In this document: positions 1,424-27,509 of the stretch, in pieces
Position numbering within the stretch: the stretch's first letter is position 1
Layout of the letters: each line of letters begins with the position of its first letter
From: a virus
Strand: one strand, 5' to 3'
Length of the DNA: 64,000 bases
IMG/VR virus record: IMGVR_UViG_3300009636_000004
Location: 37,790 to 101,789 of that record
Notes under the pieces: model-generated
The model's database searches: none
The model's input: the letters and a program-made list of their open reading frames with translations, nothing else
What the model was told of the DNA's origin: nothing
Translations under genes and position numbers: made by a program

Positions 1424-1428
1424 TGGAA

Positions 1429-1689
1429 TTATTGAGCAACAAATCTATCGGGAGTAACGCTCATCATAGGTATAACAATGTGAGGCTGAGAACCGCTAAG
1501 TTGAATAACACCATTAACAGGTGACCAAAAAATTTCATTTTTATCAAGTTCAAAGTATTCAGCTACTTTTTTTGGAAGTCTAATAGTAATAAATTTCTTA
1601 CCAATAGTTACAGGAGTGGAATGAAATTTACCAGCCACAAAAATTTTAGGTTTACAAACTTTTTTAGTTTTTTTCTTGGAAGTAGGCAT
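1429..1689 (-). CDS. Small AbrB/MazE-like protein, 86 aa
   Basis: A basic N-terminus rich in Lys (residues 4-14) precedes a segment (about 33-75) with the strand-turn pattern of SpoVT/AbrB swapped-hairpin domains (FITIRLPKKVAEYFEL then a second short beta pair). AbrB-like proteins bind DNA as dimers, so a transcriptional role is plausible. The similarity is by pattern only. It lies between the amidotransferase and amidoligase genes with its own promoter upstream. Confidence 0.5.
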   Translation of the reverse strand: MPTSKKKTKKVCKPKIFVAGKFHSTPVTIGKKFITIRLPKKVAEYFELDKNEIFWSPVNGVIQLSGSQPHIVIPMMSVTPDRFVAQ

Positions 1690-1711
1690 AATATTTTTTA
1701 ATTATAGAATA

Positions 1712-1739
1712 ATTGTATCATGGATTTATAAAAAGTCAA
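1712..1739 (-). promoter_or_regulatory. Promoter for the AbrB-like/amidoligase genes
   Basis: -35 TTGACT (1734-1739), 16 bp spacer, TGATACAAT as extended -10 (hexamer 1712-1717). The start codon at 1689 is 22 nt downstream, so this transcript would have a short leader. Confidence 0.7.
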
Positions 1740-1742
1740 TTG

Positions 1743-2735: not shown

Positions 2736-2739
2736 AATT

Positions 2740-4173
2740 TCATCTTTGTGTTGGTTCTGCTCCAGCTTCAACATCGAAGCCAAATTTTTTGATTAATTTC
2801 ATTTCTTGTTCTGTGAATTTTGTTTCTTTCCCCGAAAATCTAGCACATATAAATGCGTAAAGATGAGGATAATCTTTATTTCTAAGTTTGACATAATTCA
2901 CAAAATTATCCCAATTACGACAATAGGTAATACCATAATTACCTACCATACAAAATTGAATAAGAGCATCACAAAATTCTATTGCCTTAAAAAATGATTC
3001 TCGTTTGAGTGTTCCTTTGAAAATTCTAAATTCAATAGTATCATGATTGACAAGATTAACAGCTTCATATCTGTCACTGCGAGACAGTGTTCCGATGCGT
3101 TTAACTGTTCCGTATTTCTTTTTGCAAATACAGGAATAGTTACATGACCTTCTGCCAGCAATTGTTTCAATATGTGGTTGATTATTTTCATCATTCACGA
3201 ATACCACAATTTTTGCTATAGTGAGAAGTGATAGAGGTTTCTTTGAACAGTGGATATGAAGACCACAATTACCTCTTTCACTGTTAAACGAAACCAAGTT
3301 ATCAGGTAAATTGTCAAAAAATTTATTCCAGCGAACAAGGTGTTCTTCCTTGGATGCTGGCTGTGTGCAAATTTCAAAGCCGCAACTTAAACTGCCATCT
3401 TCTTTCACAATAGCAAAATCGCCAAATAAATCAATAACTTTTTGAGCTTTCACACCACGTTCCTCTTTGCTTTTATTTTGAACTTCAACTTCTAGTTCTA
3501 TACCGTAATAATGAGGCGGCTTACCTTGAAACTCAATTTTAGGTTTTTCTTCGTATGTGGTTATTGGGCCATAATAATTGAAACATTTATCGCATACTGA
3601 ATATTTCCCCCTGATTTTGTGAGTTATTTTGTCTTTTTGGAAAGTGTTATTACACATAGGGCAAATCTTAAAAGATTTGTCAAAACATATCTTGCAGTAA
3701 ATATTTTCCTTGTAAGTAAGAAAGTCTTGCCTGTTAAAGAATTTATGACAACAAGAACATTCTCTATAATTTACAGTAAAACAACGAAGACAAACGTTAG
3801 TTATGTTTAGGTCATTCTTTTCAGATATGCGATTTACTTCTTTTGATTCATTTTTATTATAAAGTTTATTACAACAAACACAAGTAATATAATGTTCTTT
3901 TGCACATTTGTCACATACCAAAGATTTATCTCCCATTATTTGAAATGAAGAATGAGCATCTAACTTTGTATGACAGCAGTTGCATTCTCCCGTCAATGTT
4001 CCGTTAAGGATATTATCTCTTCTACAAGCTGGGCAATCACAAGGCATTATATTCTCTTCTTTGATAAAAGTTTTTTCAGACGTATTTTCAGCCCGAATAT
4101 AGTTGTCAGAACTTTCTGGCATTGGTATTGGTTCGGTGAAAATTGATGTTGAATTTGGGTCTATGGTCGGCAT
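2740..4173 (-). CDS. Zinc-ribbon amidoligase (Amidoligase_2-like), 477 aa
   Basis: The N-terminal half (about 40-210) carries a run of CxxC pairs typical of stacked zinc ribbons, some LIM-like. The C-terminal half has the glutamine-synthetase-fold amidoligase motifs: YYGIELEVEV, KEDGSLSCGFEICTQP, NCGLHIHCS, and RYEAVNLVNHDTIEFRIFKGT. These match PF12224 in content and order. Predicted to form an amide or peptide bond with ATP; the zinc modules may hold a protein or nucleic-acid substrate. First gene after a consensus promoter and translationally close to the amidotransferase gene. Confidence 0.8.
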   Translation of the reverse strand: MPTIDPNSTSIFTEPIPMPESSDNYIRAENTSEKTFIKEENIMPCDCPACRRDNILNGTLTGECNCCHTKLDAHSSFQIMGDKSLVCDKCAKEHYITCVCCNKLYNKNESKEVNRISEKNDLNITNVCLRCFTVNYRECSCCHKFFNRQDFLTYKENIYCKICFDKSFKICPMCNNTFQKDKITHKIRGKYSVCDKCFNYYGPITTYEEKPKIEFQGKPPHYYGIELEVEVQNKSKEERGVKAQKVIDLFGDFAIVKEDGSLSCGFEICTQPASKEEHLVRWNKFFDNLPDNLVSFNSERGNCGLHIHCSKKPLSLLTIAKIVVFVNDENNQPHIETIAGRRSCNYSCICKKKYGTVKRIGTLSRSDRYEAVNLVNHDTIEFRIFKGTLKRESFFKAIEFCDALIQFCMVGNYGITYCRNWDNFVNYVKLRNKDYPHLYAFICARFSGKETKFTEQEMKLIKKFGFDVEAGAEPTQR

Positions 4174-4201
4174 TTTAATTGCTTTTCATTATTGAGCTTA
4201 T

Positions 4202-4229
4202 ATTATAACACGTAGATATAAAATGTCAA
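4202..4229 (-). promoter_or_regulatory. Promoter for zinc-amidoligase gene
   Basis: -35 TTGACA (4224-4229), 16 bp spacer, extended -10 TGTTATAAT (hexamer 4202-4207). The leader to the start codon at 4173 is about 20 nt. Confidence 0.72.
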
Positions 4230-4301
4230 GAACTGTAATAATCTCATTTAGAATCCTTATTCATTGTTAAAATTATACACACAGAAATAATCTATCTTTT
4301 A

Positions 4302-4991
4302 TTAGATGTTGAACGTTCTAATAAATGGTGAATTTCTATTACAAGATAAATTAAAAAGTTTTTCAATTCTCTTTACAAATGTAGAAATGGTAACAAATCT
4401 TTTTGTGTAATTTTTATTACCAAAACCACGAATTTCAATACGGGATGATTTATTTGTTCCATTACCGAAATGACACAAAGTTACACACCAATATTTGTCA
4501 TTTACAATATCAACCATAGATTCAACCATAGACTTGAATAGACGAACTTTGGAAGGCGATTTTTTTTGAGTTGCTTTTAACACAGTTTGGCAATAACGAT
4601 TATTTTCTCTATTAAATTTTTTCAAAATTTGGTTCCATAATTTTGAAGAAATAAATGGAAGGGGATTAAAATTTTTCATTTTAGTTTTATCTGCTGAAGA
4701 AATATTGACATGAAGGCCACAGGATGTATTAGTATTACCGTATTTATTGACAATATTAAACACTGTTTTTAGTACTTCCATTGATTCTTTGGGAGGTAGT
4801 GGTGCTGTTCTGATTTCCGTGGAATGATAACTATAGCCACAACCTGTAATACTACCATCCTCACCAATAATAATTTTTTTCTTCAATCCATAGATTTCTT
4901 TACAAAATTGAGTGAACTTGCTACTTCGGATACGACATTCTACTTCAAATCCTAACCGAATGTCAGTATCGTTAGTGAAAATAGCTTTCAT
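4302..4991 (-). CDS. Second Amidoligase_2-like protein, 229 aa
   Basis: Contains LGFEVECRI (about 13-21), GEDGSI (about 43-48), TEIRTAPLPP (about 57-66), SCGLHVNIS (about 90-98) and SRIEIRGFGN near residue 190. This is the same motif order as the C-terminal half of the neighbouring 477 aa protein, without zinc ribbons. The final FRIF-type strand is replaced by EIRGFG. Likely an active GS-fold amidoligase. The low identity to its neighbour outside the motifs argues for an old duplication or separate acquisition, and so a different substrate. Confidence 0.75.
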   Translation of the reverse strand: MKAIFTNDTDIRLGFEVECRIRSSKFTQFCKEIYGLKKKIIIGEDGSITGCGYSYHSTEIRTAPLPPKESMEVLKTVFNIVNKYGNTNTSCGLHVNISSADKTKMKNFNPLPFISSKLWNQILKKFNRENNRYCQTVLKATQKKSPSKVRLFKSMVESMVDIVNDKYWCVTLCHFGNGTNKSSRIEIRGFGNKNYTKRFVTISTFVKRIEKLFNLSCNRNSPFIRTFNI

Positions 4992-5347: not shown

Positions 5348-5947
5348 TTATTGCTGGTCAACCGTGTAAGTGGAATAGCAGTCAGTCGTTCCGGGAGTTA
5401 CCACATAGCCGCTGATACCAGCCACGATACCTTCCAAATCCTTGCAAGTCACGCCGTTGATTTTGAGAGCACTCTGAATTTGTTTAAGAGTCACTGGTGT
5501 TCCTTTTGACAAATATGCTTCAATTCGTTGAACTAAAGGGCTTTGCGTAGGATTGGGAGCATTAACGGATGGCGGAGTGGAGGCTGGAACACCTGCTGAG
5601 GGAGTAGTGGGTGTTGAAAATTCAAATACACGGAAAGGACCACTCATGTCCACATTTGTCAATCCGAGATTGGCAAGTGTGCCGTCATTTTCAAGACTTT
5701 CAATAATTGCCTTCACATCTTCATTTTTCACCCAATACTTGATACCAGACTGACTGTTAGGATTGGGATTCTCCAAACCGGGTAGAGTAAATTCACCGGC
5801 ATTAACTGCTTCCCGAATTTCAGTGGTTACATCGTGAATGGAAAAACCACCCTTAACTTTGAGTTCCTTCACCGCATTAATCACTGCTTCCTTGAGTGTA
5901 AGTGAAGGCGTTGTTGCTACTGCTGTGCTATCTGCGCTTGTTTTCAT
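5348..5947 (-). CDS. Hypothetical protein, 199 aa, two-part architecture
   Basis: The N-terminal part (about 15-105) looks like a winged-helix-type unit (LKEAVINAVKELKVKGGFSI, then a beta wing near FRVFEF). A Pro/Thr/Ser-rich linker (about 113-138) leads to a C-terminal helical unit of about 60 aa. Base composition is richer in GC than its neighbours. It is closed by a strong terminator and has its own promoter, so it is probably an abundant single-gene transcript. Function unknown. Confidence 0.6.
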   Translation of the reverse strand: MKTSADSTAVATTPSLTLKEAVINAVKELKVKGGFSIHDVTTEIREAVNAGEFTLPGLENPNPNSQSGIKYWVKNEDVKAIIESLENDGTLANLGLTNVDMSGPFRVFEFSTPTTPSAGVPASTPPSVNAPNPTQSPLVQRIEAYLSKGTPVTLKQIQSALKINGVTCKDLEGIVAGISGYVVTPGTTDCYSTYTVDQQ

Positions 5948-6210: not shown

Positions 6211-7488
6211 TTATTTACATTCAAGAAGATGTGTAATGTTTACACGATTGTTAGCGTAAACAATCAATTCGTCATGATTAAGGCCGGTATTTGCCACAGT
6301 TGCCCAAATACTATCATAACCTAATGGTGGGCGCGAACAATTTCCGTAACCTCTAGGATAATGAATTTTACCCATAGCAAATTTACAAATAAACAACCAA
6401 CCAGCTTCACCTGTTGATTGTCCCCATCTTCCATAAGTGTATCCCAACGATTTACTTGAGTTAATAGCTCCGTAAACACCATTACCCCACATTTTACCGG
6501 CAATAGCTGCGGTTGAAGGCGGACTGGTTCTAAGGCCACTTTTTAGAATACTTAAACAATTTGCTTCAGATGTTCCATGAAAAACTTCCTTTGGATTATC
6601 AGAAATAAATGCGTTGTCCATTTCGTGAACTTTGATTTTGAATATATTACGAACTTTGATGCGATCATATCCGTGCATCCTGTTCTTGGAAGTTTCAAAC
6701 CAACGTTCAAGGCGATTTGCATCGGGACCATTTTCAACATCAAGGTCAACTTTGAAAACTTGTTCAATAGTTGTTTTGTTGTCAGTTTTCTTTGAAGTAT
6801 CAGCTTTTGGTTTAGTAATGGCTGCGTAAGATGCTTCAAGAGCATCAAGAATATCGTTTTGTTTCTGAATAGCAGTAACGTCAGGAAGAATTCTTCTAAC
6901 ATCAAATTTCATACCTATACTTTGAGGAACTAAGCGAAGATAATCACTGACAAGCTTATCAAGTTGGTCATTATATCTGCTATTTTTGACAAATGGAACT
7001 GTATCTGCTAATAAACTTCTTGCCTCAATAATTGCATCAGGAGTTACGATTCCCAAGGGAGTTTGGAATAATCCTGTAGTATCATTTAAAGTAATATTTG
7101 TGGTTGATGTAATTTTATGAACATTTGATTTGACAAGACGTTCAATTAATTTATCAAGAATAGGACTACCTGAACTTCTGATAATTTGAGATTTGGCAAT
7201 TTCATGAAGATTACTAACTGCAACGGTAGGTGGTCTGGCAGATGCGACGGGTGTTGATGCATCAATGACTTTAGCTTCTGTATAACCTTTTGCTAATTTT
7301 TCCCCGATTTTCTTTTCCATGAAAGACTTGCCTACACCAGAAAAAGTCTTTGATTGAGGGTCATTGCCCACTCTTGCCCATTTTGTAACCACATCGTCAT
7401 TATCATAAAGAATAACTTCCCACCATTTATTATGATTGGCTTGAGCTTCTGCCCAAATGAATTTCTTTGATTCAATAATGTTTGCCAT
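6211..7488 (-). CDS. WGR-domain PARP-like ADP-ribosyltransferase
   Basis: Domain order is WGR (about 8-75, with WARVG at 37-41 in the WGR position), a PARP regulatory helical domain (about 95-225, with PLGIVTPDAI at 144-153) and an ART catalytic domain (about 240-425). The PARP1-type H-Y-E triad is readable: HGT at 304-306, GNGVYG with Tyr339, and DELIVY with Glu407. This arrangement matches DNA-break-activated eukaryotic PARP2/3 and a few bacterial PARPs, which use NAD+ to modify protein or DNA ends and release nicotinamide. The activating helical domain suggests regulation by nucleic acid ends. The gene lies in the same block as PRPP synthetase and nicotinate phosphoribosyltransferase. Confidence 0.9.
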   Translation of the reverse strand: MANIIESKKFIWAEAQANHNKWWEVILYDNDDVVTKWARVGNDPQSKTFSGVGKSFMEKKIGEKLAKGYTEAKVIDASTPVASARPPTVAVSNLHEIAKSQIIRSSGSPILDKLIERLVKSNVHKITSTTNITLNDTTGLFQTPLGIVTPDAIIEARSLLADTVPFVKNSRYNDQLDKLVSDYLRLVPQSIGMKFDVRRILPDVTAIQKQNDILDALEASYAAITKPKADTSKKTDNKTTIEQVFKVDLDVENGPDANRLERWFETSKNRMHGYDRIKVRNIFKIKVHEMDNAFISDNPKEVFHGTSEANCLSILKSGLRTSPPSTAAIAGKMWGNGVYGAINSSKSLGYTYGRWGQSTGEAGWLFICKFAMGKIHYPRGYGNCSRPPLGYDSIWATVANTGLNHDELIVYANNRVNITHLLECK

Positions 7489-7802: not shown

Positions 7803-8351
7803 TTATACATAGTTAAAATCTTCATAGTTGAATTCTTTAGTGTGTGGTGGAAGTTTTAAGTGAATATTAAGTTTATATCCTTTTTCCAAAAATTCTTTGT
7901 TATTGGCATTTTTCCAATAATAAAAAGTTTCTTCACTTATAATATCGTGGTAATCACTGTAAATATCATCTAATGTTTTCTGAAAACAAACATAATCATG
8001 TTTCATCCCAGCTAACCAAAGACACCTAAGAATTCTTGTGATTCTCAAAAAATTGTGATTTTTCATCGTAATCCAATAATCATTTTTCTCATAAAACCAA
8101 ATCATTCGGGCAAGAGACGTTTGAATGGCACTTTGAATGATAGGGTCTTTTTTTATTATTTCTATATCTTCTTCGGTTAAAACGGGTGTATTTGGATGGC
8201 GTTTACTAGGAATATCCGTAGGAAACATCCATTGAATTATATCGTTACTTTGACTAAGTTTATAATCTGGCAAACTTTGCATTTCAAATAATGTTCTGCC
8301 TCTATTATCCTTTGATTCATCGCGGAGAAATTTTATGATATGTGAGGGCAT
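7803..8351 (-). CDS. OGFr-conserved-region-like protein, 182 aa
   Basis: Residues 1-110 contain MQSLPDYKLSQSNDIIQWMF followed by PT-rich loop and NTPVLTEEDI. This is the order found in the opioid growth factor receptor conserved region (PF04664: helix, D/HxxIQWLFP, xNPxAPxLTxxEI). In animals the domain is a receptor fragment; bacterial and phage members are uncharacterised. Its start overlaps the YopX-like gene. Confidence 0.65.
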   Translation of the reverse strand: MPSHIIKFLRDESKDNRGRTLFEMQSLPDYKLSQSNDIIQWMFPTDIPSKRHPNTPVLTEEDIEIIKKDPIIQSAIQTSLARMIWFYEKNDYWITMKNHNFLRITRILRCLWLAGMKHDYVCFQKTLDDIYSDYHDIISEETFYYWKNANNKEFLEKGYKLNIHLKLPPHTKEFNYEDFNYV

Positions 8352-8731
8352 ATTATATCAGGATTTTCAAAAATATTACCAATAATTTTGTAAAGATAAT
8401 CTTTACAAAGATGATTATTATGAAAGTCGTATAATCTTTTTCTTACTTTTACACGAAATCCAAATCCACAAAAAATAATATTTCCTTTACATATTCTAGT
8501 AGAATAAGGAGGCCCATCTTCTTGTTCAATCCATTCTACTATATCCCCTTCAAAAATTTCTTTATCACATCTATCTTTTAATCCCGTGAATAATTGAACT
8601 ACTGAATTTTGGGGATTAAGTGAGTTTTCACAAATCAATTCTCCCCTAACTGAAATACCCAAAAAATCACGGGGATTACCCCATTTATTTAAAAGTTTAT
8701 CCCATACTCTGAATTTTATAGTTCTGTTCAT
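8333..8731 (-). CDS. YopX-family protein
   Basis: Opens with RTIKFRVWDKLLNKW and contains QLFTGLKD, IFEGDIVEW and IIGNIFENPD near the C-terminus, the ordered motifs of the YopX family (PF09643) common in phages and prophages. 132 aa is the usual size. Function unknown in the family; members are early phage proteins. Overlaps the PRPP synthetase start by 4 nt. Confidence 0.85.
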   Translation of the reverse strand: MNRTIKFRVWDKLLNKWGNPRDFLGISVRGELICENSLNPQNSVVQLFTGLKDRCDKEIFEGDIVEWIEQEDGPPYSTRICKGNIIFCGFGFRVKVRKRLYDFHNNHLCKDYLYKIIGNIFENPDIICPHIS

Positions 8732-9723
8732 GTGAATAATTCGCTGACACTTTCATTATTGTGAATGTTTTTGATGGCTGTAGCAAATAAAGGTGAAACA
8801 TCCACTATAATTATTTTATTCTCACAACTATAAATTACAGCATTTTTACCATAACCAGAATCATCACCGTATAATTCCCATTTTTTATCAAAATTAACAG
8901 AGTTAGATACAAAAAGTTTCTCAATCAAACCGTTTTTGAATGCATCAATGAGTCGCTGATAACCTGTATCGGTAAAACATCCGTGTGAAATAGCACAATA
9001 AATTTTTACTGCGCCTTCTTCTTTACAAGCAGTTGCCGCTTCAACCAATGTTCCGGCTGATTCGGTAAGGTCATCAACAATAAGAACTTTCTTACCTTTA
9101 ACATCACCAATGAAATGTTTTACTTCAACCGAAGTTTCGTTGGTTCGTTTTTTTGAAATAATTACCAAATCAGTTTTTAGAGCAGTAGCATATTCTTCTG
9201 CACGTTTTACTGCTCCAACATCAGGACTTACCACAGCTTTTATTCCAATGTCTTTTATAACATTTATAAGAGCTGGTCTGAAAGATAATTGGTCGACAGG
9301 CAAATTAGTAAAACCAACTATTTGAGGGGAATGAAGGTCCATCGTAAGAATACGATTAACACCAGATGCCTTTAATAAATCCATTACTAATCTAGCAGAA
9401 ATAGGAACACGGCTTTTATCTTTCCTATCCTGTCTAGCATAACCGAAATAGGGAATAACAGCAGTAATGCGCCCAGCCGAAGCCCGGCGTGCGGCATCAC
9501 ACATCACCAAAAGTTCCATAAGGTTGTCATTGACTGGTAATGAAGTGGATTGAATCAAAAAGACATCATTACCACGAATATTTTCCTTAAATTGACAATA
9601 TCTTTCACCACTTGGAAACGTTTTTAAATCAATCCTTCCTACAGGAATTGACAAACAACTGTTTCTCGAAAGGCAGATTTTTTCAACTAACGGTTTATTG
9701 GAACTACCTGAAAATATTTTCAT
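8728..9723 (-). CDS. prs: Ribose-phosphate pyrophosphokinase (PRPP synthetase)
   Basis: Transfers pyrophosphate from ATP to ribose 5-phosphate, giving PRPP. Motifs in order: FPSGERY, IPYFGYARQDRK, ILTMDLHSPQIVGF, SPDVGAVKRAEEYA and the PRPP loop VDDLTESAGTL. 331 aa, slightly longer than bacterial Prs because of a C-terminal extension. PRPP is the co-substrate of the nicotinate phosphoribosyltransferase two genes away. A homologous phage enzyme (Adps of the NARP1 pathway) instead pyrophosphorylates ADP-ribose; that substrate cannot be excluded here. Confidence 0.9.
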   Translation of the reverse strand: MKIFSGSSNKPLVEKICLSRNSCLSIPVGRIDLKTFPSGERYCQFKENIRGNDVFLIQSTSLPVNDNLMELLVMCDAARRASAGRITAVIPYFGYARQDRKDKSRVPISARLVMDLLKASGVNRILTMDLHSPQIVGFTNLPVDQLSFRPALINVIKDIGIKAVVSPDVGAVKRAEEYATALKTDLVIISKKRTNETSVEVKHFIGDVKGKKVLIVDDLTESAGTLVEAATACKEEGAVKIYCAISHGCFTDTGYQRLIDAFKNGLIEKLFVSNSVNFDKKWELYGDDSGYGKNAVIYSCENKIIIVDVSPLFATAIKNIHNNESVSELFT

Positions 9724-10003: not shown

Positions 10004-10942
10004 TTATTTACAAAATTCGCTTATATGAGCAAATTTAAATCCACATCGTTCTGCAAATGTTCTGTCAGTTGTTTGGTCGCCCACCATAATACAATCAGAG
10101 GGGCACAGTTTGTATTTTTCAATAAAAATTGCTCCCATACCGACATGCGGTTTTCTACAATAGCAAGATACAGGAGGAATACTGTGTTGGCAATATAAAA
10201 AGTCAACTTTGATACCAAGTTGCCGGTTCGTTTCCTCAAAACATTGAACTGCCATATCCTCTGAAATAATTCCTTTGGCAATGCCTGATTGATTTGATGC
10301 TCCAAGAATAATAAATCCATTATCTTCTGCTTCTTTCACAATATTGGTCATTTTAGGATTTACTTTAATTTCTGAAAGTTTCGTTGGATAATCATATTCT
10401 CCAAGACTTTCACGAAGAACACCATCATAATCCAAAATAATAGCTTTATGCTTGTATTGAGCCGGCCAAATTCTTTTGAAAGGAACTTCAATTATTTCAT
10501 CAAACCCTTCTTCGGTTGTAGGTGGTTGAAATATTTTTCTGTAATGAAAAAGAGCTGCTGGTGGAAAAGCATTTGGGTCTTTCAATTTCTTAAAATCGTC
10601 TGGGCCGGGAAGTATTCCATATTTCCTAATCATCCGAAGGCAAACATTTAATTGTGCTTCTTCAAGAGAAGTAGTCAACCAATGACAGGTGATTTTGGCT
10701 CGTAATTGTTTTGCCAATTTAATGATAGAAGAACGGCTTTCTCTTGTTGGATAGGTATTATCAAGAACAACCTTTTCAACGCCATTAACAAGAGCATCTT
10801 CTACTATTTCTGTTTGGCCTTTAATACTACCACCTGTCATATCACGGTTAATTCTTTGATAATCGTCTTTGACAAATTGTTCAACCAATGTGCTTTTACC
10901 AGCAGCATTGATACCCATTACTATGATAATGTGTTTACTCAC
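10004..10942 (-). CDS. Bifunctional kinase / HAD phosphatase of the polynucleotide kinase type
   Basis: N-terminal P-loop kinase (Walker A GINAAGKST, 10-18; NRDMTG with Asp34 as candidate general base) followed by a HAD phosphatase (DYDGVLR with Asp171/Asp173, GASNQSG, CRKPHVG, MVGDQTTD). Kinase-then-phosphatase is the order of T4 Pnkp, which heals 5'-OH and 3'-phosphate or cyclic phosphate ends. The CxH...CxCRKP stretch is the zinc-binding loop of GmhB/HisB-type HAD enzymes. It therefore likely repairs RNA or DNA ends, but a small-molecule kinase/phosphatase remains possible. Overlaps pncB by 4 nt. Confidence 0.78.
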   Translation of the reverse strand: MSKHIIIVMGINAAGKSTLVEQFVKDDYQRINRDMTGGSIKGQTEIVEDALVNGVEKVVLDNTYPTRESRSSIIKLAKQLRAKITCHWLTTSLEEAQLNVCLRMIRKYGILPGPDDFKKLKDPNAFPPAALFHYRKIFQPPTTEEGFDEIIEVPFKRIWPAQYKHKAIILDYDGVLRESLGEYDYPTKLSEIKVNPKMTNIVKEAEDNGFIILGASNQSGIAKGIISEDMAVQCFEETNRQLGIKVDFLYCQHSIPPVSCYCRKPHVGMGAIFIEKYKLCPSDCIMVGDQTTDRTFAERCGFKFAHISEFCK

Positions 10943-13451: not shown

Positions 13452-15179
13452 TTACTTTCTTTTAATTTGATGAATAGTGTTACCATTGATAAAGAAAACT
13501 CCATCGGGTGTAGAAAACAGTTTCATTGAATTATCAAAAGGAGCATCCTTCAATACTTCTACATGCTGATTATTGACAAACATTTCCAAATCGCCATCTT
13601 CATTAAGTAATAGACATACTCCGTTTTCCATGACCGCGAAATTTATAGTATTCACGGTTACATCTTCTACTTTGCGAACGTCAAAATCACTATAATCTTT
13701 TTTGAATACAATTATGAATTTGTCATATTTACCATTCTTTTCTGCTATAATTACAGTAACGGTTTTTTCAGATTTAGCATCTACCACTCTATATCCATCT
13801 AATTGAGGAATATGTTTGCTAAAACAACCATCTTCTTTGTATGGTAATGTTAATAGATAATTACCTAATAAATTTTGAATAGCACATCCTTCATAAACGG
13901 TAGTAGCATAGACCGAAACGTTTTCTATTTCATTTACACGATGAATAATTCTATCACCCATTGCGGTAAATTTGTTTTTTACCAACTTACCATTACCACT
14001 CATGGTATAGACACAGTTATTTCTTACAAAAATATCTTTGCTGGCAATAGTTCCAACTTCTCTTTGCCTGTTTAATTCAGTAAAAGTGACTTTAGTGCCA
14101 GATAAACTAGCAACAATGATAGTCCCATCTGAAGCCGGACAAAGGAGAGTTTTTCTTACTTTTTCACAACCACTCATGAGTTCTTTATCATCACAATAAA
14201 TCTTCTTGGTTGTAACAACGTGATTCAAGCCCATTGATTGAATAACACTTACAATGTTTTCACTATAAGCAGCTACTTGGATAACATCAATTTGATTGTT
14301 ACCTTTAATAGTAACAATAGCAGCCGGAACTGTAAGAGGCGCTAGACTATCTGGTAAGGGTGGAACACTTCGTTCATTTCTAAGAAATATTGCCTCATAC
14401 CAATCATAGTGTCTTTTAGGTATTACGTTGAAACTATTGACACTCGGGGGAACTTTTACACCACGATGGAAAACACTGATACCATCATCCATTTGTTTCT
14501 GTTTGTCTTTAGGTTTATAATGTGGATGTCCGCCCCTAAACGGATGAATATTAGTATATAACCAAAAACTTAATATGCCCCACGAAAACCAATCTGAAAG
14601 AATGTCAGGATTATATATAAGTTTTCCATTGACGTGTGTTGACACTCTCCTATCTCTTACACTATCCATAATGGCGGTGGCCTTAAAGCTTGGAGTTGCA
14701 TAACTGTCAACATCAATAAAATACGGTGTCAAGACTGTTGGGGTGAGATTCACCAACACATTAAGCTCATTAAAATCAACAATCAAACAATGAGCGCCGT
14801 GAATGTCATTGGTAGTCAACTGCAATTGTTTAACCAATTCTGCAATCATTTGCGGGTCAATATTGTTGTCTTGTTTAAAGGTGCGGGTAAATAATTTTAA
14901 TAAAGGTTCAACATTATCAATATAATTGGCTATATAACCTAATGGGTCACCAGAACTTGCATCAAAAATCAAATCTTGTGGAACTACCACGTGCGGGTCA
15001 GTAATGAGTGATAATTCTTGTATCTTTCTTAAAGGTAGTGTTTTGTGAGAATCATGATAAATCTTGAAAACTTTTCCACCGTTGACATAAATGGATGCTT
15101 CACCACCAGCCGCTTTATAATATTTGTCAGTAAGAGTAAATATTCCGCCCCTACTTCCTATTTTGACTTTTTTATTCAT
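13452..15179 (-). CDS. Protein kinase-like protein with C-terminal repeat domain (TerY-P triad kinase)
   Basis: Residues 15-260 form a protein kinase-like domain: Gly-rich GGEASIY (25-31), Lys39 in KVFKIY, catalytic-loop equivalent IVDFNELNVLV (Asp135, Asn140), DFG equivalent FIDVDSY (Asp156) and DWFSWGILSFWLYTNIHPF as helix F-like region. Residues 290-575 show repeated short beta strands, compatible with a beta-propeller sensor. Together with the PP2C and vWA genes upstream it forms the kinase/phosphatase/vWA set called the TerY-P triad in tellurite-resistance-type stress systems. The fusion to a propeller-like region is unusual. Confidence 0.75.
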   Translation of the reverse strand: MNKKVKIGSRGGIFTLTDKYYKAAGGEASIYVNGGKVFKIYHDSHKTLPLRKIQELSLITDPHVVVPQDLIFDASSGDPLGYIANYIDNVEPLLKLFTRTFKQDNNIDPQMIAELVKQLQLTTNDIHGAHCLIVDFNELNVLVNLTPTVLTPYFIDVDSYATPSFKATAIMDSVRDRRVSTHVNGKLIYNPDILSDWFSWGILSFWLYTNIHPFRGGHPHYKPKDKQKQMDDGISVFHRGVKVPPSVNSFNVIPKRHYDWYEAIFLRNERSVPPLPDSLAPLTVPAAIVTIKGNNQIDVIQVAAYSENIVSVIQSMGLNHVVTTKKIYCDDKELMSGCEKVRKTLLCPASDGTIIVASLSGTKVTFTELNRQREVGTIASKDIFVRNNCVYTMSGNGKLVKNKFTAMGDRIIHRVNEIENVSVYATTVYEGCAIQNLLGNYLLTLPYKEDGCFSKHIPQLDGYRVVDAKSEKTVTVIIAEKNGKYDKFIIVFKKDYSDFDVRKVEDVTVNTINFAVMENGVCLLLNEDGDLEMFVNNQHVEVLKDAPFDNSMKLFSTPDGVFFINGNTIHQIKRK

Positions 15180-15182
15180 CCG

Positions 15183-15404
15183 TTATAGTCCCTGTAATTT
15201 ATCTTTGTATCTTTCATGGGCGTTATCAATCATTGAACCCCAGCAATCGGCCAACGCATCACTGTAAATTTTTAGTATTTCATCTTGTGTGAATTTATAT
15301 CCACATTCATCACATTCTTCACTCCAGTCAACCATGTGTTCACCCACATCAACTTCAGCAGTGATTTGTTCATCACATTTTGGACAATGAAAGGAGTAAT
15401 ACAT
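15183..15404 (-). CDS. Zinc-ribbon protein, 73 aa
   Basis: Two Cys pairs, CPKC (8-11) and CDEC (35-38), form a single zinc ribbon; the rest is acidic and helical. It sits 3 nt before the kinase gene, inside the triad operon, so it may be an accessory factor. No family recognised. Confidence 0.6.
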   Translation of the reverse strand: MYYSFHCPKCDEQITAEVDVGEHMVDWSEECDECGYKFTQDEILKIYSDALADCWGSMIDNAHERYKDKLQGL

Positions 15405-15405
15405 A

Positions 15406-15702
15406 TTATTTCATTTTCTTTCTAGATTTATGAGGTTCATATTTTTTATTTGTTACGTTGATATAATCTTCTTTACTTCGTTGCCAAATATCATCACGTC
15501 CTTTTACAGCAAAAGACAATGAACCACAACCTGAATTGACAGATTCTATAGTGTCAAATGCAATATATTTTAATTTTCTTGGTAAATAAATTAAAGCATC
15601 ATCGTTATCACCAAGACAAATTATTTTAGCATTTAAAATGATTGTTCCATAGGAAAGACAATCAATATCTTCGTTTTTACTTATTCTATATTTAATTTTC
15701 AT
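15406..15702 (-). CDS. Hypothetical protein, 98 aa
   Basis: Mostly beta-strand prediction, ending in a basic tail (KSRKKMK). It overlaps the PP2C stop by 4 nt, so it is translationally coupled within the triad operon. Not recognised. Confidence 0.58.
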   Translation of the reverse strand: MKIKYRISKNEDIDCLSYGTIILNAKIICLGDNDDALIYLPRKLKYIAFDTIESVNSGCGSLSFAVKGRDDIWQRSKEDYINVTNKKYEPHKSRKKMK

Positions 15703-16517
15703 ACAACAATTGCTGCCATTGAAATGTCATCATAATGACTGATTTGGGTTTTAATCCATTGTCTTTTCAAAAATGAAAGTCTTCTCTGAACAAAAACACC
15801 GGGTGTGGTTTTAAAGTCAATAAAGTAGCGGGCGATAGCTTCCCAAGGAATTGTAGAACCATCAGCAGTGGTAAAACTGTTGACACCATCTGAACAAATA
15901 GCTATAATATCATTTTCTTCAACCAACCCTTTAAATGTAACAGGTTCAAATGGTTTAACATAAGTTTCATTTTCAATTACGTCACCTGATTGGCTGTCTG
16001 AGGTTTCACCTGTATATATGGAAATATCCAATATTTTTTTGGAACCTAAAACTGTTTTTTCGTATTCCCATAAGCGAAGTTTATCAAGATAGTAGGAAAG
16101 ATATGCTGGACAATTACCTTCAAAATTTACGTGGACGAGACGAATATTTGTGGCGGTTTTATGAAAGAAAACTCCATCACCATACATGTGAACTGTAAAT
16201 TTCTTATCTTTCACCCATGCAACTAACAAAGTAGAATCCAAAGAATGAGGATGAAGCGGAATTGTGTCACCAATATGTTCAAGATTTCTAATAGTAACTT
16301 TACCAAACAAATCATAATTCATATCACTGCCACCAATTGATAACGTTCGCTTTGCTGACAAAGCTAATGCTCTTGCTCCAAAATCCACGTCAGGACTTGA
16401 GGAACAACCATCACAGACAATAGCATAAGAACTGTTACTGTCAATCGCATTACTTAAAGCATAATCTTCACAAATTGTATGTCCATGTCCGATGGAAAAA
16501 TAGTGGTCGGCGTTCAT
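15699..16517 (-). CDS. PP2C-type protein phosphatase
   Basis: Mn/Mg-dependent Ser/Thr phosphatase fold: ICEDYALSNAI for the first metal Asp, AIVCDGCSSS for the DG metal motif, LLVAWVKDKKFTVHMYGDG in the core, IICSDGVNSF for the third metal site and HYDDISMAAIVV for the DD motif at the C-terminus. Predicted to reverse the action of the adjacent kinase. The start used is ATG at 16517; an in-frame GTG at 16562 would add 15 residues but would place a perfect 11 bp hairpin in the coding region. Confidence 0.8.
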   Translation of the reverse strand: MNADHYFSIGHGHTICEDYALSNAIDSNSSYAIVCDGCSSSPDVDFGARALALSAKRTLSIGGSDMNYDLFGKVTIRNLEHIGDTIPLHPHSLDSTLLVAWVKDKKFTVHMYGDGVFFHKTATNIRLVHVNFEGNCPAYLSYYLDKLRLWEYEKTVLGSKKILDISIYTGETSDSQSGDVIENETYVKPFEPVTFKGLVEENDIIAICSDGVNSFTTADGSTIPWEAIARYFIDFKTTPGVFVQRRLSFLKRQWIKTQISHYDDISMAAIVV

Positions 16518-16533
16518 ATGATTATTAGAAGTG

Positions 16534-16558
16534 GGGAAGGGAATTACATTCCCTTCCC
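16534..16558 (-). other. Perfect inverted repeat between vWA and PP2C genes
   Basis: GGGAAGGGAAT-GTA-ATTCCCTTCCC, 11 bp stem, 3 nt loop, lying between the vWA stop and the PP2C ATG. There is no T-tract after it, so it may be an attenuator, an mRNA processing or stabilising hairpin, or an operator, rather than a classical terminator. Confidence 0.6.
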
Positions 16559-16585
16559 TCACAGTGATTATGCACTTGATATTTA

Positions 16586-17335
16586 TTAAAACTTAAAGGA
16601 ACTAATCGGTTGGCTTGGAGCACCGCTACCCAATGCTGAACTTGTCGAACTGATTGATTGACTGACGAAGGCTGCCAATTTGGCAATTTTTCCGGGGGTA
16701 GCTTTGCCTATCGAAACATATTGTGTTATTCCAGCCTTCGTAACCATATCCTGCAAATAAGCATCAAGGTTGGTATCATCCGTGGTGACACCAACAAGGA
16801 TAAGGGTAATACTTTCAAGATTTTCACTCTTGCGGGCTTCTTCAAGGGATTTCTTAATTTGTGCCGCATCGTAAATGTTACCGCTGTTGTTTTGACTATC
16901 TGTAACCACCACTATAATGGCGTTGACAAGAAAGTTTTGACTGGTCAATTGTTTTCCATAAGTCGAAGTAGCTTGAATACTTTCATCAACTGCGTCGAAT
17001 AGAGCTGTCATACCGCCAATACTCAAAATATTGTCGTAATCATGCTCTTGAATAGAACCCAACAACTTAAAACCGTGAAGTTCTTTCAGGTTGTCGTTGA
17101 ATTGGGTAAGTCGAAGCATAAGGTTATCCTTACGCGGGGACTTCTCCATTGCTTTTAAAATTGTCTTGATAGCTTGCTCCAAATTAGCAGCAAAGCCAGA
17201 CACGGAACCACTGGCATCTTCAACAATCGTTGCCAAGGTGTATTCAGCCGCCCCAAGTTTGTTAATCTTGGTAGCGCTGAATTTGTAATTAGAACCCGCG
17301 TTTAGCATTTCTAGGTCTTTATCCATTAAGCTCAT
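16586..17335 (-). CDS. TerY-like von Willebrand factor A protein
   Basis: A vWA fold from about residue 30 to 220 with a MIDAS DxSGS motif (EDASGSVSG, about 38-46), a Thr in the second metal loop (about 108-114) and IVVVTDSQNNSG for the third. TerY-type vWA proteins pair with a PP2C phosphatase and a kinase, the two genes downstream here. Base composition is less AT-rich than the surroundings, as in the 199 aa gene at 5.3 kb, which may mark high expression. Confidence 0.78.
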   Translation of the reverse strand: MSLMDKDLEMLNAGSNYKFSATKINKLGAAEYTLATIVEDASGSVSGFAANLEQAIKTILKAMEKSPRKDNLMLRLTQFNDNLKELHGFKLLGSIQEHDYDNILSIGGMTALFDAVDESIQATSTYGKQLTSQNFLVNAIIVVVTDSQNNSGNIYDAAQIKKSLEEARKSENLESITLILVGVTTDDTNLDAYLQDMVTKAGITQYVSIGKATPGKIAKLAAFVSQSISSTSSALGSGAPSQPISSFKF

Positions 17336-17368: not shown

Positions 17369-18181
17369 TTACCAATCTTTCGAGGTAGTGAGCTTCATGC
17401 CCTTGTTAGCCATTTCAAGAACGAAGTCTCGTCCAAGTTTTTCAAATCCACCCACATTAGAAGATGTATCTTTCAATAGGGTGAATTTTTTAACATTATC
17501 CACACCGAATTGTTTGGCTACATCGTAAATTGTGTTAGCAACACAATGACTTAATGCTTCGCCGGTGATAAGAATTTCATCAGCCTCAGTTAAAGCATCA
17601 ATCAAATTGGTGTTCAACTTGGTGCTAGGGTCATTATCATCCGGCACGTCAGCTTGAACACCGCTATAGTGTTCTGTGAAAAAGTTGGAACCTTTGGCAA
17701 CAAAGTTCACTCTGTCAAAACCATTTTCCCATTCATAGAGAGCCTTTGCAACCGAAGGAACAATACTATGCCCCCAAGTTCCAATTAAACAGTGGGGTGG
17801 CCAAATACACAAAACATATCGTTTGTTTTTGGCAAGTGTTTCAACATAAGTCTGTGCTCTTGCCTGCCACCGTGGATTAAATGTTCTCCATACACCGTTT
17901 TTTACATCGTCAACAGTAATAACAGTAAACGGATTTGGATGTTCACCTTTGGAATTAACCCAAAAAATAGGGTGAGCAATATGAACCAATTGGTGAGAAT
18001 CAAGGGTACAGTGAATTTGCTCAATTCTTTTCCCGTTTTTTGTAATAAATGTGGCTAACCGTTCCATATCGGTATCAGCGCCACCGACAACCAATGCCCC
18101 CTTTTCCCCACCGGGGCCATTTGGGATGCAGAAATCATTCTGCGGGTCAATCATCAATAGATGGATTTTTCTTGCACTCAT
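17369..18181 (-). CDS. pncA: Nicotinamidase
   Basis: Hydrolyses nicotinamide to nicotinate and ammonia. Isochorismatase-fold motifs: LLMIDPQNDFC (catalytic Asp about 12), the metal site TLDSHQLVHIAHP, and the nucleophile region GEALSHCVANTIYD with the catalytic Cys. 270 aa, longer than bacterial PncA (about 210) because of inserted loops, closer to fungal-size enzymes. It feeds nicotinate to PncB and sits one gene from a Nudix hydrolase and two from nadM. Confidence 0.85.
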   Translation of the reverse strand: MSARKIHLLMIDPQNDFCIPNGPGGEKGALVVGGADTDMERLATFITKNGKRIEQIHCTLDSHQLVHIAHPIFWVNSKGEHPNPFTVITVDDVKNGVWRTFNPRWQARAQTYVETLAKNKRYVLCIWPPHCLIGTWGHSIVPSVAKALYEWENGFDRVNFVAKGSNFFTEHYSGVQADVPDDNDPSTKLNTNLIDALTEADEILITGEALSHCVANTIYDVAKQFGVDNVKKFTLLKDTSSNVGGFEKLGRDFVLEMANKGMKLTTSKDW

Positions 18182-18226: not shown

Positions 18227-18255
18227 ATCATATCAGACTTTTTCTAATCTGTCAA
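18227..18255 (-). promoter_or_regulatory. Promoter for pncA
   Basis: -35 TTGACA (18250-18255), 17 bp, extended -10 TGATATGAT (hexamer 18227-18232). It lies over the 3' end of the Nudix gene. The leader of about 38 nt includes AAAGGA close to the pncA start. Confidence 0.68.
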
Positions 18256-18667
18256 ATCGCATCTTTAACTGTCCGATAATTTCTTTTAGACCGGGCATTA
18301 AATCCAATTTCAACGCTTCATCACAAGTCATCAATATCCAATCGCCTGTTTTTTCATTTTCAATTCTCAAGGGAATTTCTGTTTCATTTAATTCAATTAA
18401 ATAAACAAAACAAACGTCTGTAGTTGGGTCATCAAAAATAGCGTCCACGTATTCCAATCTTTTTGTGTCAATTTCAAGACCCGTTTCTTCGGTAACTTCT
18501 CTGATACCACTCTCTACTGGATTTTCTCCAATCTCCAATTTACCACCTGCAAATTGCCATCTACCAGAAAAATTTATAGTATTTTTTCTTTGTGACATAT
18601 AGATGCAGTTTCTAAAGAGTAAGCCGACTGTCACTGTATGTCTTACTGTATGCCTTGTGTATTTCAT
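18233..18667 (-). CDS. Nudix hydrolase, 144 aa
   Basis: The full Nudix box is present: GGKLEIGENPVESG then IREVTEETGLEI (about 39-64), with all catalytic Glu residues. Nudix enzymes split nucleoside diphosphates linked to X; candidates here are ADP-ribose or oxidised dNTPs. It begins 1 nt after nadM, so the two are probably co-translated, favouring an NAD-linked substrate such as ADP-ribose. That substrate is an inference. Confidence 0.82.
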   Translation of the reverse strand: MKYTRHTVRHTVTVGLLFRNCIYMSQRKNTINFSGRWQFAGGKLEIGENPVESGIREVTEETGLEIDTKRLEYVDAIFDDPTTDVCFVYLIELNETEIPLRIENEKTGDWILMTCDEALKLDLMPGLKEIIGQLKMRFDRLEKV

Positions 18668-19743: not shown

Positions 19744-20214
19744 TTAAATGTAATCATATTCATCATCATGTTCAGTTTTCTTTAAACTTATCTCCAAATC
19801 TACTTTAAGTAAAGCTTTGTTTAATTTAAAAAGAATATGTCTAAGACCGGGAACTAAATCTAAAACAACTGCAGCATTCATTTTAAATAATTTCCAATCC
19901 GAACGGTCTGTTACACCATTATTATTGGTAGGAACTTCGTGTTCTTTAAGATGAACAAGATAAACGAAGTAAAATTCATCGGCTGCATCTATGGTAATTG
20001 AACCAATGTAATGAAGCTTACTCCCTGCGATTATTAGCCCTGTTTGGTCTTGTGCAATTCTAATAGAAGCTGTATGCCCATTTTCGCCTTGTTTCATTGC
20101 ACCATTGACAAATTGCCACTTTTTAGGAAAGAGAGGGGTGTCAATTCGTCTGGATAGATAAATGCCTCTGTCTTTGACAAGACCAACTGCTACGCCGTAT
20201 GTTGTGGTGCCCAT
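19744..20214 (-). CDS. Nudix-fold protein with degenerate catalytic box
   Basis: The start MGTTTYGVAVGLVK at 20214 is preferred over the frame's upstream ATG, which lies inside the -10 element. The Nudix box region reads GAMKQGENGHTASIRIAQDQTGL: the first Gly and Glu remain, but REUxEE has become RIAQDQ, removing most metal-binding Glu residues. It resembles the 144 aa Nudix protein in length and flanking strands (WQF, LVPGLRHIL). Probably a catalytically dead or re-purposed paralogue, for example a ligand sensor. Confidence 0.7.
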   Translation of the reverse strand: MGTTTYGVAVGLVKDRGIYLSRRIDTPLFPKKWQFVNGAMKQGENGHTASIRIAQDQTGLIIAGSKLHYIGSITIDAADEFYFVYLVHLKEHEVPTNNNGVTDRSDWKLFKMNAAVVLDLVPGLRHILFKLNKALLKVDLEISLKKTEHDDEYDYI

Positions 20215-20233
20215 AATTTTTAATCGCTTAAAA

Positions 20234-20261
20234 AGCATATCACCATTTTATATTTTGTCAA
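20234..20261 (-). promoter_or_regulatory. Promoter for the degenerate Nudix gene
   Basis: -35 TTGACA (20256-20261), 16 bp, extended -10 TGATATGCT (hexamer 20234-20239). It stands back to back with the dCMP deaminase promoter, forming a divergent promoter region. Confidence 0.7.
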
Positions 20262-25394: not shown

Positions 25395-25422
25395 ATTATA
25401 TCAGAATTGTATAAGAAGTCAA
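25395..25422 (-). promoter_or_regulatory. Promoter for the 250 aa gene
   Basis: -35 TTGACT (25417-25422), 16 bp, perfect extended -10 TGATATAAT (hexamer 25395-25400). The -35 lies over the last codons of nadE. Confidence 0.8.
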
Positions 25423-27509
25423 GCGTTACTTCCACCAAGAACAATCGGTTTTTTGACAAATACTATGAGTTCTTCTAGTTCTTCCTCATATCCACCTGTA
25501 AGAATTGGTGTTCTACACCATGTTCGGGGGTCAAGATTATGGTCGTCCATGTGGAAACTCAAAGCATATCGTTCACGTTTCCATTGGTTCCTTGAAAACA
25601 ACTTAAAGAATTTGGTAATATCTTTGATTAATTGATTGTTATCATAATCAATCGAAATCCTCAATGATTGATAGATTTCAAGAGGCGTGTAACGGTTTTT
25701 TACAACCATCGTTTCAATCTTGTGTAATAACCAATAAGGCATTAAGTCATCTTCATCGGTCTGTTTGTAGCTTGCTGGACGAAGTTCAGCCGTAGGCTGT
25801 TGTTCAACAATAGCATACATCTCCGTTGTTGGGCCAATGTTTCTTGGACCGGTATAGGCAACCCAAGCTAAAAATTCACGGATATAAACCTTTGGTAATC
25901 CAGCGATAGGTGCTACACTTCCTGCGGTGTCACCATCCATTGTTGCGTAACCAACTGCCGCTTCTGACATATTGCTTGTCGTCAATAATAGAGTTCCCTT
26001 CATATTGGCAATCATCCAAATGCCGGGAGCGCGAACACGAGCTTGAAGATTCTGTAAAACAATATCATTTTCTTCAAAGGTCAATTCACTTCCCTTGACA
26101 ATTTTACCTAGATTCTTATAATTCTTTACCATCGGTTCAACGTCAAATTCATAATGAGGAATATTTAGAGCTTTCGCCAATCCCTTAGCGGCGTTTCTTG
26201 TAATTTCTCCACTCTGAGCTGTTGATTGATAAGCGGTAGTAATTAAAGATTTAGTAATTCTGCGAATAAATTCATTTTCTGTTTTAGCATTGACGATATT
26301 AAAAATTCCATCATTTTTAACGTGAGGACAATATTTTTCAATAAATCCCACCACTCCCAATTCTTTTACTCCAAGATGAATTCCCATAGCACAAAGATAT
26401 ATCACCATTGCCGAATCGGCTCCACCACTTAACGAAATAGTAAAACCTTTCGTGTGACTCTTTCTCATGTAATCCATCAAAGCTAACCCAAGAGCACGAA
26501 CACATTCTTCATGTTTTACAAAGCCGGTAGAAAATTTATCTATTTCCCATTCCTCTTGTTCTGGACTGGTCGTAAGTTGTTCTGTAATAGTAGGATACCT
26601 GAAATCAACCTTAACACAACCTTGATTGTATTGTTCAATATTTGGTTGAAAACTTGCTGTGCGAACTTGTGAAGTTCGTGTATTATCAACATCAATAACT
26701 GCTGTGGTTAATAAAACATTCTTATAAGTAAAACGTTTTCCAATAGCTACCAAAGAACCACCTGTAGCAATTAAAGCTCCACCGTCATAAATTGCCCGTC
26801 CGGCTTCATTACCAACAAGATTAGCATAAACGTATGTAGCTCCAAATGCTCGTGAACCGTCAACAACGAAATTTTTTCGTGTGTTTAGTTTATTAAAAGA
26901 AAAGTGTGAGGCACTAGGATTGAGATAAATATCAACTCCCTTGGTAGCCAAAACTGTTCCCGGTCTATTGGCAACCCAAGCATCTTCACAAATTTCATAT
27001 CCGATTTTGATGCCTCCAATATTAAAATGAATATCACCAATAGGAAAATCTCCACCAAGTTCAGGAATATTTATAATTTGGACTATACCAGATGGCCAAG
27101 GTTTATACCAACGATTTTCGTAATGAATACCATCACCAGCCAAGTGTTGTTTACAAGTAAATCCTACAACTTTTCCATAGACTACAGTGGCAACAGTATT
27201 GTAAAGAGTGTTATTGAATCTTACAGGTAACCCAATACAAACAATTAAGTTGTCACATAAACGATTATATCCATTTGTATTAGGAGTGTTTATAATCTCT
27301 TTCAATTTTATCATCGCTCTATGAGAAACATCAGAGCAGAAAAGGTCATCTTCCATTCCATAGCCTGTGATGGTCGCTTCAGGAAGGCAAAGAATAGTAA
27401 CATTTTCATTTTTAGCTGTTTTAATTGCTTCAAGAATATTAGCCATATTCCCCTTCCAATCACGGGGAGTTTGATTCAATACCGCAGCAGCAACTTTAAT
27501 CAGCTTCAT
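25419..27509 (-). CDS. nadE: Glutamine-dependent NAD+ synthetase
   Basis: Makes NAD+ from nicotinate adenine dinucleotide, ATP and glutamine. The N-terminal nitrilase-type glutaminase (about 1-290) shows the E-K-C triad: CLPEATITGYG, TCKQHLAGDG and GYEICEDAWV. The C-terminal synthetase (about 330-690) has the PP-loop ISLSGGADSAM and the NaAD site TSNMSEAAVGYATMDGD. 696 aa, the normal size of two-domain NadE. This last step needs no host amidotransferase because the glutaminase is fused. Leaderless-type promoter 6 nt upstream. Confidence 0.96.
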   Translation of the reverse strand: MKLIKVAAAVLNQTPRDWKGNMANILEAIKTAKNENVTILCLPEATITGYGMEDDLFCSDVSHRAMIKLKEIINTPNTNGYNRLCDNLIVCIGLPVRFNNTLYNTVATVVYGKVVGFTCKQHLAGDGIHYENRWYKPWPSGIVQIINIPELGGDFPIGDIHFNIGGIKIGYEICEDAWVANRPGTVLATKGVDIYLNPSASHFSFNKLNTRKNFVVDGSRAFGATYVYANLVGNEAGRAIYDGGALIATGGSLVAIGKRFTYKNVLLTTAVIDVDNTRTSQVRTASFQPNIEQYNQGCVKVDFRYPTITEQLTTSPEQEEWEIDKFSTGFVKHEECVRALGLALMDYMRKSHTKGFTISLSGGADSAMVIYLCAMGIHLGVKELGVVGFIEKYCPHVKNDGIFNIVNAKTENEFIRRITKSLITTAYQSTAQSGEITRNAAKGLAKALNIPHYEFDVEPMVKNYKNLGKIVKGSELTFEENDIVLQNLQARVRAPGIWMIANMKGTLLLTTSNMSEAAVGYATMDGDTAGSVAPIAGLPKVYIREFLAWVAYTGPRNIGPTTEMYAIVEQQPTAELRPASYKQTDEDDLMPYWLLHKIETMVVKNRYTPLEIYQSLRISIDYDNNQLIKDITKFFKLFSRNQWKRERYALSFHMDDHNLDPRTWCRTPILTGGYEEELEELIVFVKKPIVLGGSNA

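What the first reader, a model, noticed from the sequence alone, without database searches (positions are those of the whole stretch)
6211..7488. A WGR-PARP encoded in a phage genome beside NAD+ genes
The protein has WGR, helical regulatory and ART domains with readable H304, Y339 and E407, the full PARP2/3-like layout. Such multi-domain PARPs are characteristic of eukaryotic DNA-damage signalling and rare in bacteria and viruses. An NAD+ consumer next to NAD+ salvage genes could modify host proteins or DNA ends, and the salvage could replace NAD+ it spends.
Basis: partly seen in the sequence, partly recalled or inferred. Interest (0 to 1): 0.85.

Follow-up and report, generated by a model that had tools for sequence, protein, structure and literature searches.

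The report
Jumbo-phage PARP in NAD+ gene island
A very large bacteriophage carries a complete-looking relative of the human DNA-break sensor PARP1/PARP2, in the same gene block as a whole pathway for rebuilding NAD+, the fuel that enzyme burns; such phage PARPs were already known, but this pairing with a full NAD+ pathway does not seem to have been described.

Summary
Window 6211-7488 (minus strand, 425 aa) is a WGR-HD-ART PARP. The AlphaFold model superposes on DNA-bound human PARP1 over all three domains (Z 27). The phage is a jumbo phage: the same DNA lies in a 365-kb contig.

It is not unique. Phage PARPs have been reported since 2005-2021, and I found about 45 viral clusters and 36 bacterial or archaeal loci.

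The block encodes a nearly complete Preiss-Handler NAD+ route (PncA-, PncB-, NadM-Nudix-like, NadE, plus PRPP synthetase). Related phages keep PARP beside these genes in other orders, once with a glycohydrolase and a probable macrodomain (probable erasers). A 2022 survey of viral NAD+ systems does not mention PncA, PncB or NadE.

A counter-test limits the coupling: several phages carry these NAD+ genes without PARP. Across viral PARPs, the commonest neighbours are DNA/RNA ligases and a winged-helix protein. Best reading: a break-responsive ADP-ribosyltransferase used during nucleic-acid repair, with phage-made NAD+ sustaining it and other NAD+ users. No activity is shown.

The parts
6211..7488 (-). 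WGR-HD-ART PARP, 425 aa; WGR about 1-78, helical regulatory domain about 100-225, ART about 245-425; H304-Y339-E407
5348..5947 (-). PARP-associated winged-helix protein (199 aa, two small helical/winged-helix domains, Pro/Thr-rich linker); homologues lie within 2.5 kb of PARP in 17 of 45 viral PARP clusters
8728..9723 (-). PRPP synthetase (Prs), makes the PncB co-substrate
   Evidence: NCBIfam PRK01259 347.9 bits, over the 297 cut-off
10004..10942 (-). bifunctional polynucleotide kinase / HAD phosphatase-like (PNK) end-healing enzyme
   Evidence: conserved in L042 and L043
10939..12102 (-). PncB, nicotinate phosphoribosyltransferase
   Evidence: TIGR01514 389.8 bits, over the 269.55 cut-off; Pfam PF04095 1.2e-50
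17369..18181 (-). PncA-like nicotinamidase (IDPQNDF; LDSHQ..HIAHPI; WPPHCLIG; KGSNFFTEHYS; GEALSHC)
   Evidence: PRK11609 1.6e-7, below cut-off; motifs conserved in 4 phages; next to PncB/NadE in L040 and L155
18669..19595 (-). NadM-Nudix-like (nucleotide adenylyltransferase fused to Nudix); its nucleotidyltransferase motif is altered (HEEH), so this is the weakest step of the route
   Evidence: PRK05379 1.7e-7, Nudix 4.4e-16, alignment
18233..18667 (-). Nudix hydrolase, candidate ADP-ribose pyrophosphatase
   Evidence: PF00293 4e-14
19744..20238 (-). Nudix hydrolase
   Evidence: PF00293 3.2e-7
25419..27509 (-). NadE, glutamine-dependent NAD+ synthetase (CN_hydrolase + NAD_synthase; GYEICEDAW; SGGADS)
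   Evidence: PF02540 2.1e-32, PF00795 6.5e-19; TIGR00552 over cut-off
13452..17335 (-). kinase-like (13452-15179), PP2C phosphatase (15699-16562) and vWA (16586-17335) triad, the tightest partner of the PncA-like gene across phages
   Evidence: PP2C, vWA; conserved triad; the kinase call is by eye only, no Pfam match

Best explanation
A jumbo-phage clade-1 (PARP1/2/3-like) ADP-ribosyltransferase. Inferred working: the WGR domain binds a nucleic-acid break during infection, the helical domain relays this to the ART domain, and the enzyme transfers ADP-ribose from NAD+ to itself, to nearby DNA-bound proteins (for example its winged-helix partner) or to nucleic-acid ends. This marks or protects breaks until phage ligase and PNK repair them. 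Macrodomain and/or ADP-ribosylglycohydrolase enzymes of the same phage could remove the mark. The released nicotinamide can re-enter the phage's own Preiss-Handler route (PncA to PncB to NadM-like to NadE), and free ADP-ribose could be cut by Nudix to ribose-5-phosphate, which Prs turns into PRPP. Shown here: the domains, catalytic residues, structure match, gene content and recurring neighbourhoods. Inferred: activity, break dependence, targets, and flux through the NAD+ route.
For: Three-domain match to PARP1 on a DNA break and to full-length PARP2 by profile; the viral WGR consensus keeps the NNNK and GR positions aligned with PARP2. H-Y-E invariant in 33 viral PARPs down to about 20% identity, so catalysis is under selection. 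Unbiased clustering of PARP neighbours puts ATP-dependent DNA ligases (11 clusters), T4-type RNA ligases (10) and winged-helix proteins on top; a ligase lies within 2.5 kb in 18 of 45 clusters and a winged-helix protein in 17 of 45, against 0 of 16 ThyA-anchored control loci. A macrodomain gene sits immediately upstream of PARP in L066/L070/L072 (Pfam-confirmed in L071). G001, the longer contig of this phage, has a macrodomain and a tandem ADP-ribosylglycohydrolase. In G004 the order is macro(weak)-PARP-winged helix-glycohydrolase-Nudix-PncA-PncB-NadE within about 11 kb. NAPRTase is in 12 of 19 PARP contigs against 1 of 9 PARP-less controls; NadE 9 of 19 against 0 of 9.
Against: No biochemistry. 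Neighbouring phages are related, so the counts are not independent and the controls are few. In this window the ligases are not adjacent to PARP (36742-37977 and 55306-56355); only PNK is near. The erasers of this phage lie about 76-88 kb away. PncA/PncB/NadE occur without PARP in the L150, L155 and L161 contigs, so NAD+ supply is not dedicated to PARP. The adenylyltransferase motif is altered.
Confidence: 0.5

Rival explanations
1. Host-takeover enzyme: like T4 Alt/ModA in role, it ADP-ribosylates host RNA polymerase, ribosomal or defence proteins; the WGR domain only anchors it to DNA.
For: Phage ARTs typically modify host proteins; Iyer et al. 2021 propose this for phage PARPs (PMC7824862).
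Against: The full break-sensing layout with regulatory domain is kept, and neighbours are ligases and winged-helix proteins rather than transcription-takeover genes.
Confidence: 0.25
2. Counter-defence: PARP together with macro/ARH/Nudix and NAD+ synthesis handles ADP-ribose chemistry of host immunity (reverses or competes with DarT-like or NADase defences); NAD+ synthesis refills pools emptied by host NADases.
For: The NAD+ module also occurs without PARP; phage NAD+ rebuilding against NADases is established for NARP1 (PMC12774641).
Against: A transferase that itself consumes NAD+ is an odd part of a pure refill system; PARP-ligase and PARP-winged-helix adjacency is left unexplained.
Confidence: 0.15
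3. RNA-repair accessory: PARP marks or caps RNA ends in the tRNA-repair pathway with PNK and RNA ligase.
For: RNA ligase is a frequent neighbour (10 clusters), PNK near PARP in the window, L042 and L043, Ro60-like protein and tRNA cluster in the window.
Against: DNA ligases are at least as frequent; WGR is best known as a DNA-end binder.
Confidence: 0.1

Closest known systems
Human PARP2/PARP3 and the PARP1 WGR-CAT part (clade 1 ARTD)
   Same: WGR-HD-ART order, H-Y-E triad, fold over all three domains
   Different: About 20% identity, shorter loops in the ART domain, no N-terminal extension, encoded by a phage; activity unknown
Xanthomonas phage XacN1 PARP BBA65562.1, Klebsiella phages FBKp34/05F01, Stenotrophomonas RAS14
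   Same: Same three-domain phage PARP, about 30-33% identical over full length; FBKp34's GenBank note already lists WGR, regulatory and catalytic domains
   Different: In these phages the NAPRTase-family gene is far from PARP; the window belongs to a separate all-viral clade
Bacterial PARPs (Herpetosiphon, Bacteroidota, Microbacterium, Variovorax)
   Same: Same layout; DNA-dependent activity reported for the Herpetosiphon enzyme (PMC4245714)
   Different: The window's clade holds no bacterial sequence in this sample
NARP1 (Adps + Namat) and KVP40-type NadV/NadM/NadR salvage
   Same: Phage-encoded NAD+ rebuilding from nicotinamide
   Different: Here the deamidating Preiss-Handler route (PncA-like, PncB, NadM-like, NadE) plus ordinary Prs; NadE, PncA and PncB are not named in the 2022 survey text

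Membership tests
Clade 1 PARP (PARP1/2/3-like) | WGR domain | tested here: met
   PF05406 23.1 bits over cut-off 22; structure aligned from residue 1
Clade 1 PARP (PARP1/2/3-like) | Helical regulatory domain (PARP_reg) | tested here: met
   Pfam 24.8 bits, just under cut-off 26.8, but full-length structural match to PARP1 and PARP2 and profile match
Clade 1 PARP (PARP1/2/3-like) | ART domain with H-Y-E triad | tested here: met
Clade 1 PARP (PARP1/2/3-like) | Activation by DNA breaks; poly(ADP-ribose) formation | not testable with these tools
   needs biochemistry
T4 Alt/ModA ART family (R-S-E) | R-S-E motif | tested here: not met
   H-Y-E motif, PARP Pfam family
NARP1 | Namat (NAMPT-family transferase) paired with Adps | tested here: not met
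   The transferase is PncB-type (TIGR01514, over cut-off) and the kinase matches ordinary ribose-phosphate diphosphokinase PRK01259
Preiss-Handler NAD+ pathway | Nicotinate phosphoribosyltransferase (PncB) | tested here: met
Preiss-Handler NAD+ pathway | NAD+ synthetase (NadE) | tested here: met
Preiss-Handler NAD+ pathway | NaMN adenylyltransferase | tested here: inconclusive
   NadM-Nudix-like by weak match, altered motif
Preiss-Handler NAD+ pathway | Nicotinamidase (PncA) feeding the route | tested here: inconclusive
   below family cut-offs but catalytic-type motifs kept and adjacent to PncB/NadE in other phages

The most novel reading that the evidence does not exclude
Some jumbo phages run a self-contained, reversible ADP-ribosylation cycle: a break-activated PARP writer, macrodomain/glycohydrolase erasers, and a phage-encoded Preiss-Handler pathway that recycles both products (nicotinamide and ADP-ribose) to NAD+, supporting a PARP-based break-repair response independent of the host.
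Probability: 0.25. Interest if true: 0.85.

Novelty: new variant of a known kind. Interest (0 to 1): 0.55.

Why it matters
If the reading is right, PARP-type break signalling exists outside eukaryotes as a mobile phage function, in natural gene sets that already contain writer, candidate erasers and fuel supply. These would be small, testable models for how PARP signalling works and perhaps how it arose. The Preiss-Handler module also widens the known ways phages rebuild NAD+ beyond NadV/NadM/NadR and NARP1.

Tried and rejected
NARP1 as the identity of the NAD+ genes: rejected, since PncB and ordinary Prs models fit. Salvage dedicated to PARP: weakened by PncA-anchored loci without PARP; the PncA-like gene's tightest partner is the vWA-PP2C-kinase triad. 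Winged-helix partner as a linker-histone relative: only generic winged-helix matches, H1x one of many tied weak rows, none at E below 0.001, and a non-significant Pfam hint. Recent eukaryotic origin: the window PARP lies in an all-viral clade of 10 with 100/98 support; the human row is a long branch of unsure place. Scan of an 8-sequence alignment failed for lack of conserved stretches; scan with the LR756511 PARP found nothing. PARP frequency in NAD-anchored (2/5) against ThyA-anchored (1/7) large contigs was not significant.

Full report
What is there. The ORF at 6211-7488 on the minus strand encodes 425 aa with WGR, helical regulatory and ART domains (Pfam). A profile of 33 viral relatives matches full-length human PARP2 at 2e-51 and PARP1 at 4e-51. 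AlphaFold gives pLDDT 84, and the model aligns over residues 1-425 with human PARP-1 bound to a DNA double-strand break at Z 27. H304, Y339 and E407 are correct as written and invariant in all 33 viral sequences.

What it sits in. The window is part of a 101.8-kb virus record. A stretch of 22,102 bases around the gene (window 1-22102) is 100% identical to a 365-kb viral contig, G001, so this is a fragment of a jumbo phage. On the same strand the block carries Prs, a kinase/phosphatase (PNK) and PncB, a PncA-like nicotinamidase, a NadM-Nudix-like protein, further Nudix enzymes, a CoaD-like protein and a glutamine-dependent NadE. Together these would make NAD+ from nicotinamide. PncB, Prs and the NadE synthetase domain pass curated cut-offs. 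PncA and NadM are weaker, and the NadM motif is altered. In the rest of the phage, G001 has a macrodomain about 76 kb away and a tandem ADP-ribosylglycohydrolase about 88 kb away on the other side.

Relatives. Phage PARPs are not new. GenBank phages XacN1, FBKp34, 05F01, RAS14 and phi4:1 carry them, one with the three domains already in its note, and reviews mention phage PARPs (PMC1266365; PMC7824862; PMC4245714; PMC9503650). I found 41 viral loci in one scan (43 clusters with the GenBank phages; 45 with L040 and L042) and 36 loci in bacterial and archaeal genomes. The window PARP belongs to an exclusively viral clade of ten (100/98).

Neighbourhoods. Without choosing families beforehand, the commonest PARP neighbours are ATP-dependent DNA ligases, T4-type RNA ligases and winged-helix proteins (family checks). 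The two winged-helix families are related by profile comparison (85% probability, E 6e-6) and fold as winged helices of no particular known family. Ligases are within 2.5 kb in 18 of 45 clusters and the winged-helix protein in 17 of 45, against 0 of 16 ThyA-anchored control loci; the rows are related phages, so the p values (0.0013, 0.002) are only indicative. In L066, L070 and L072 a macrodomain gene abuts PARP.

NAD+ link. Selecting by PncB alone gave two further phages, and both carry PARP 5-8 kb from PncB. In G004 the order is macro(weak), PARP, winged helix, glycohydrolase, Nudix, PncA, PncB, NadE, all within about 11 kb. In the L046 group it is PARP, winged helix, NadM-Nudix, PncA, vWA, PP2C, kinase. 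The order differs from the window, so the association has survived rearrangement. NAPRTase-family genes are in 12 of 19 PARP contigs and NadE in 9 of 19, against 1 and 0 of 9 PARP-less controls. The counter-test: of eleven contigs chosen by the PncA-like gene, only two hold a PARP, and contigs of 232, 293 and 195 kb lack it; many of the others are short fragments. The NAD+ module is therefore associated with PARP but not dedicated to it.

How it most likely works. By established knowledge of PARP1/2, WGR senses a break, the helical domain relays this, and ART uses NAD+. Ligase and PNK neighbours and the winged-helix partner fit a repair role. Erasers and the NAD+ route would allow a cycle. All functional steps are inferred.

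Literature limits. The 2022 survey of 21,191 viral proteomes names NadV, NadM and NadR but not PncA, PncB, NadE or nicotinamidase. Single genes are known: Atu_ph07 carries nicotinate phosphoribosyltransferase (PMC6102473) and its record has an annotated NAD synthetase. Searches for a phage Preiss-Handler pathway found none, but only open-licence papers are held, and the original NARP1 paper was not read.

Noticed in passing
window 13452-17335 and loci L143-L161: A vWA-PP2C-kinase-like triad is the most constant partner of the phage PncA-like gene (most of the PncA-anchored loci), resembling the TerY-P triad; its link to nicotinamide metabolism is unexplained.
   Followed up: partly
window 7803-8351: Protein matching Pfam OGFr_N (opioid growth factor receptor region, 4.1e-8) beside PARP, conserved in L042 and in LR756511.
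   Followed up: partly
window 569-4991: Cluster of COOH-NH2 ligase, class-II glutamine amidotransferase-like and two amidoligase-family genes, probably a peptide-tagging module.
   Followed up: no
window 44860-46419: Strong PHROG 850 RNA-binding protein (6.8e-141), by eye Ro60/TROVE-like; a similar gene lies near PARP in L043-L045.
   Followed up: no
L066 (about 2.5 kb upstream of PARP): By eye an NAD+-dependent DNA ligase, then a macrodomain, then PARP in a row: three NAD+/ADP-ribose-linked genes together.
   Followed up: partly
L119: A PARP in a Nanoarchaeia metagenome bin (22% identity); PMC4245714 reported no PARPs in archaea. Binning error or viral origin not excluded.
   Followed up: no
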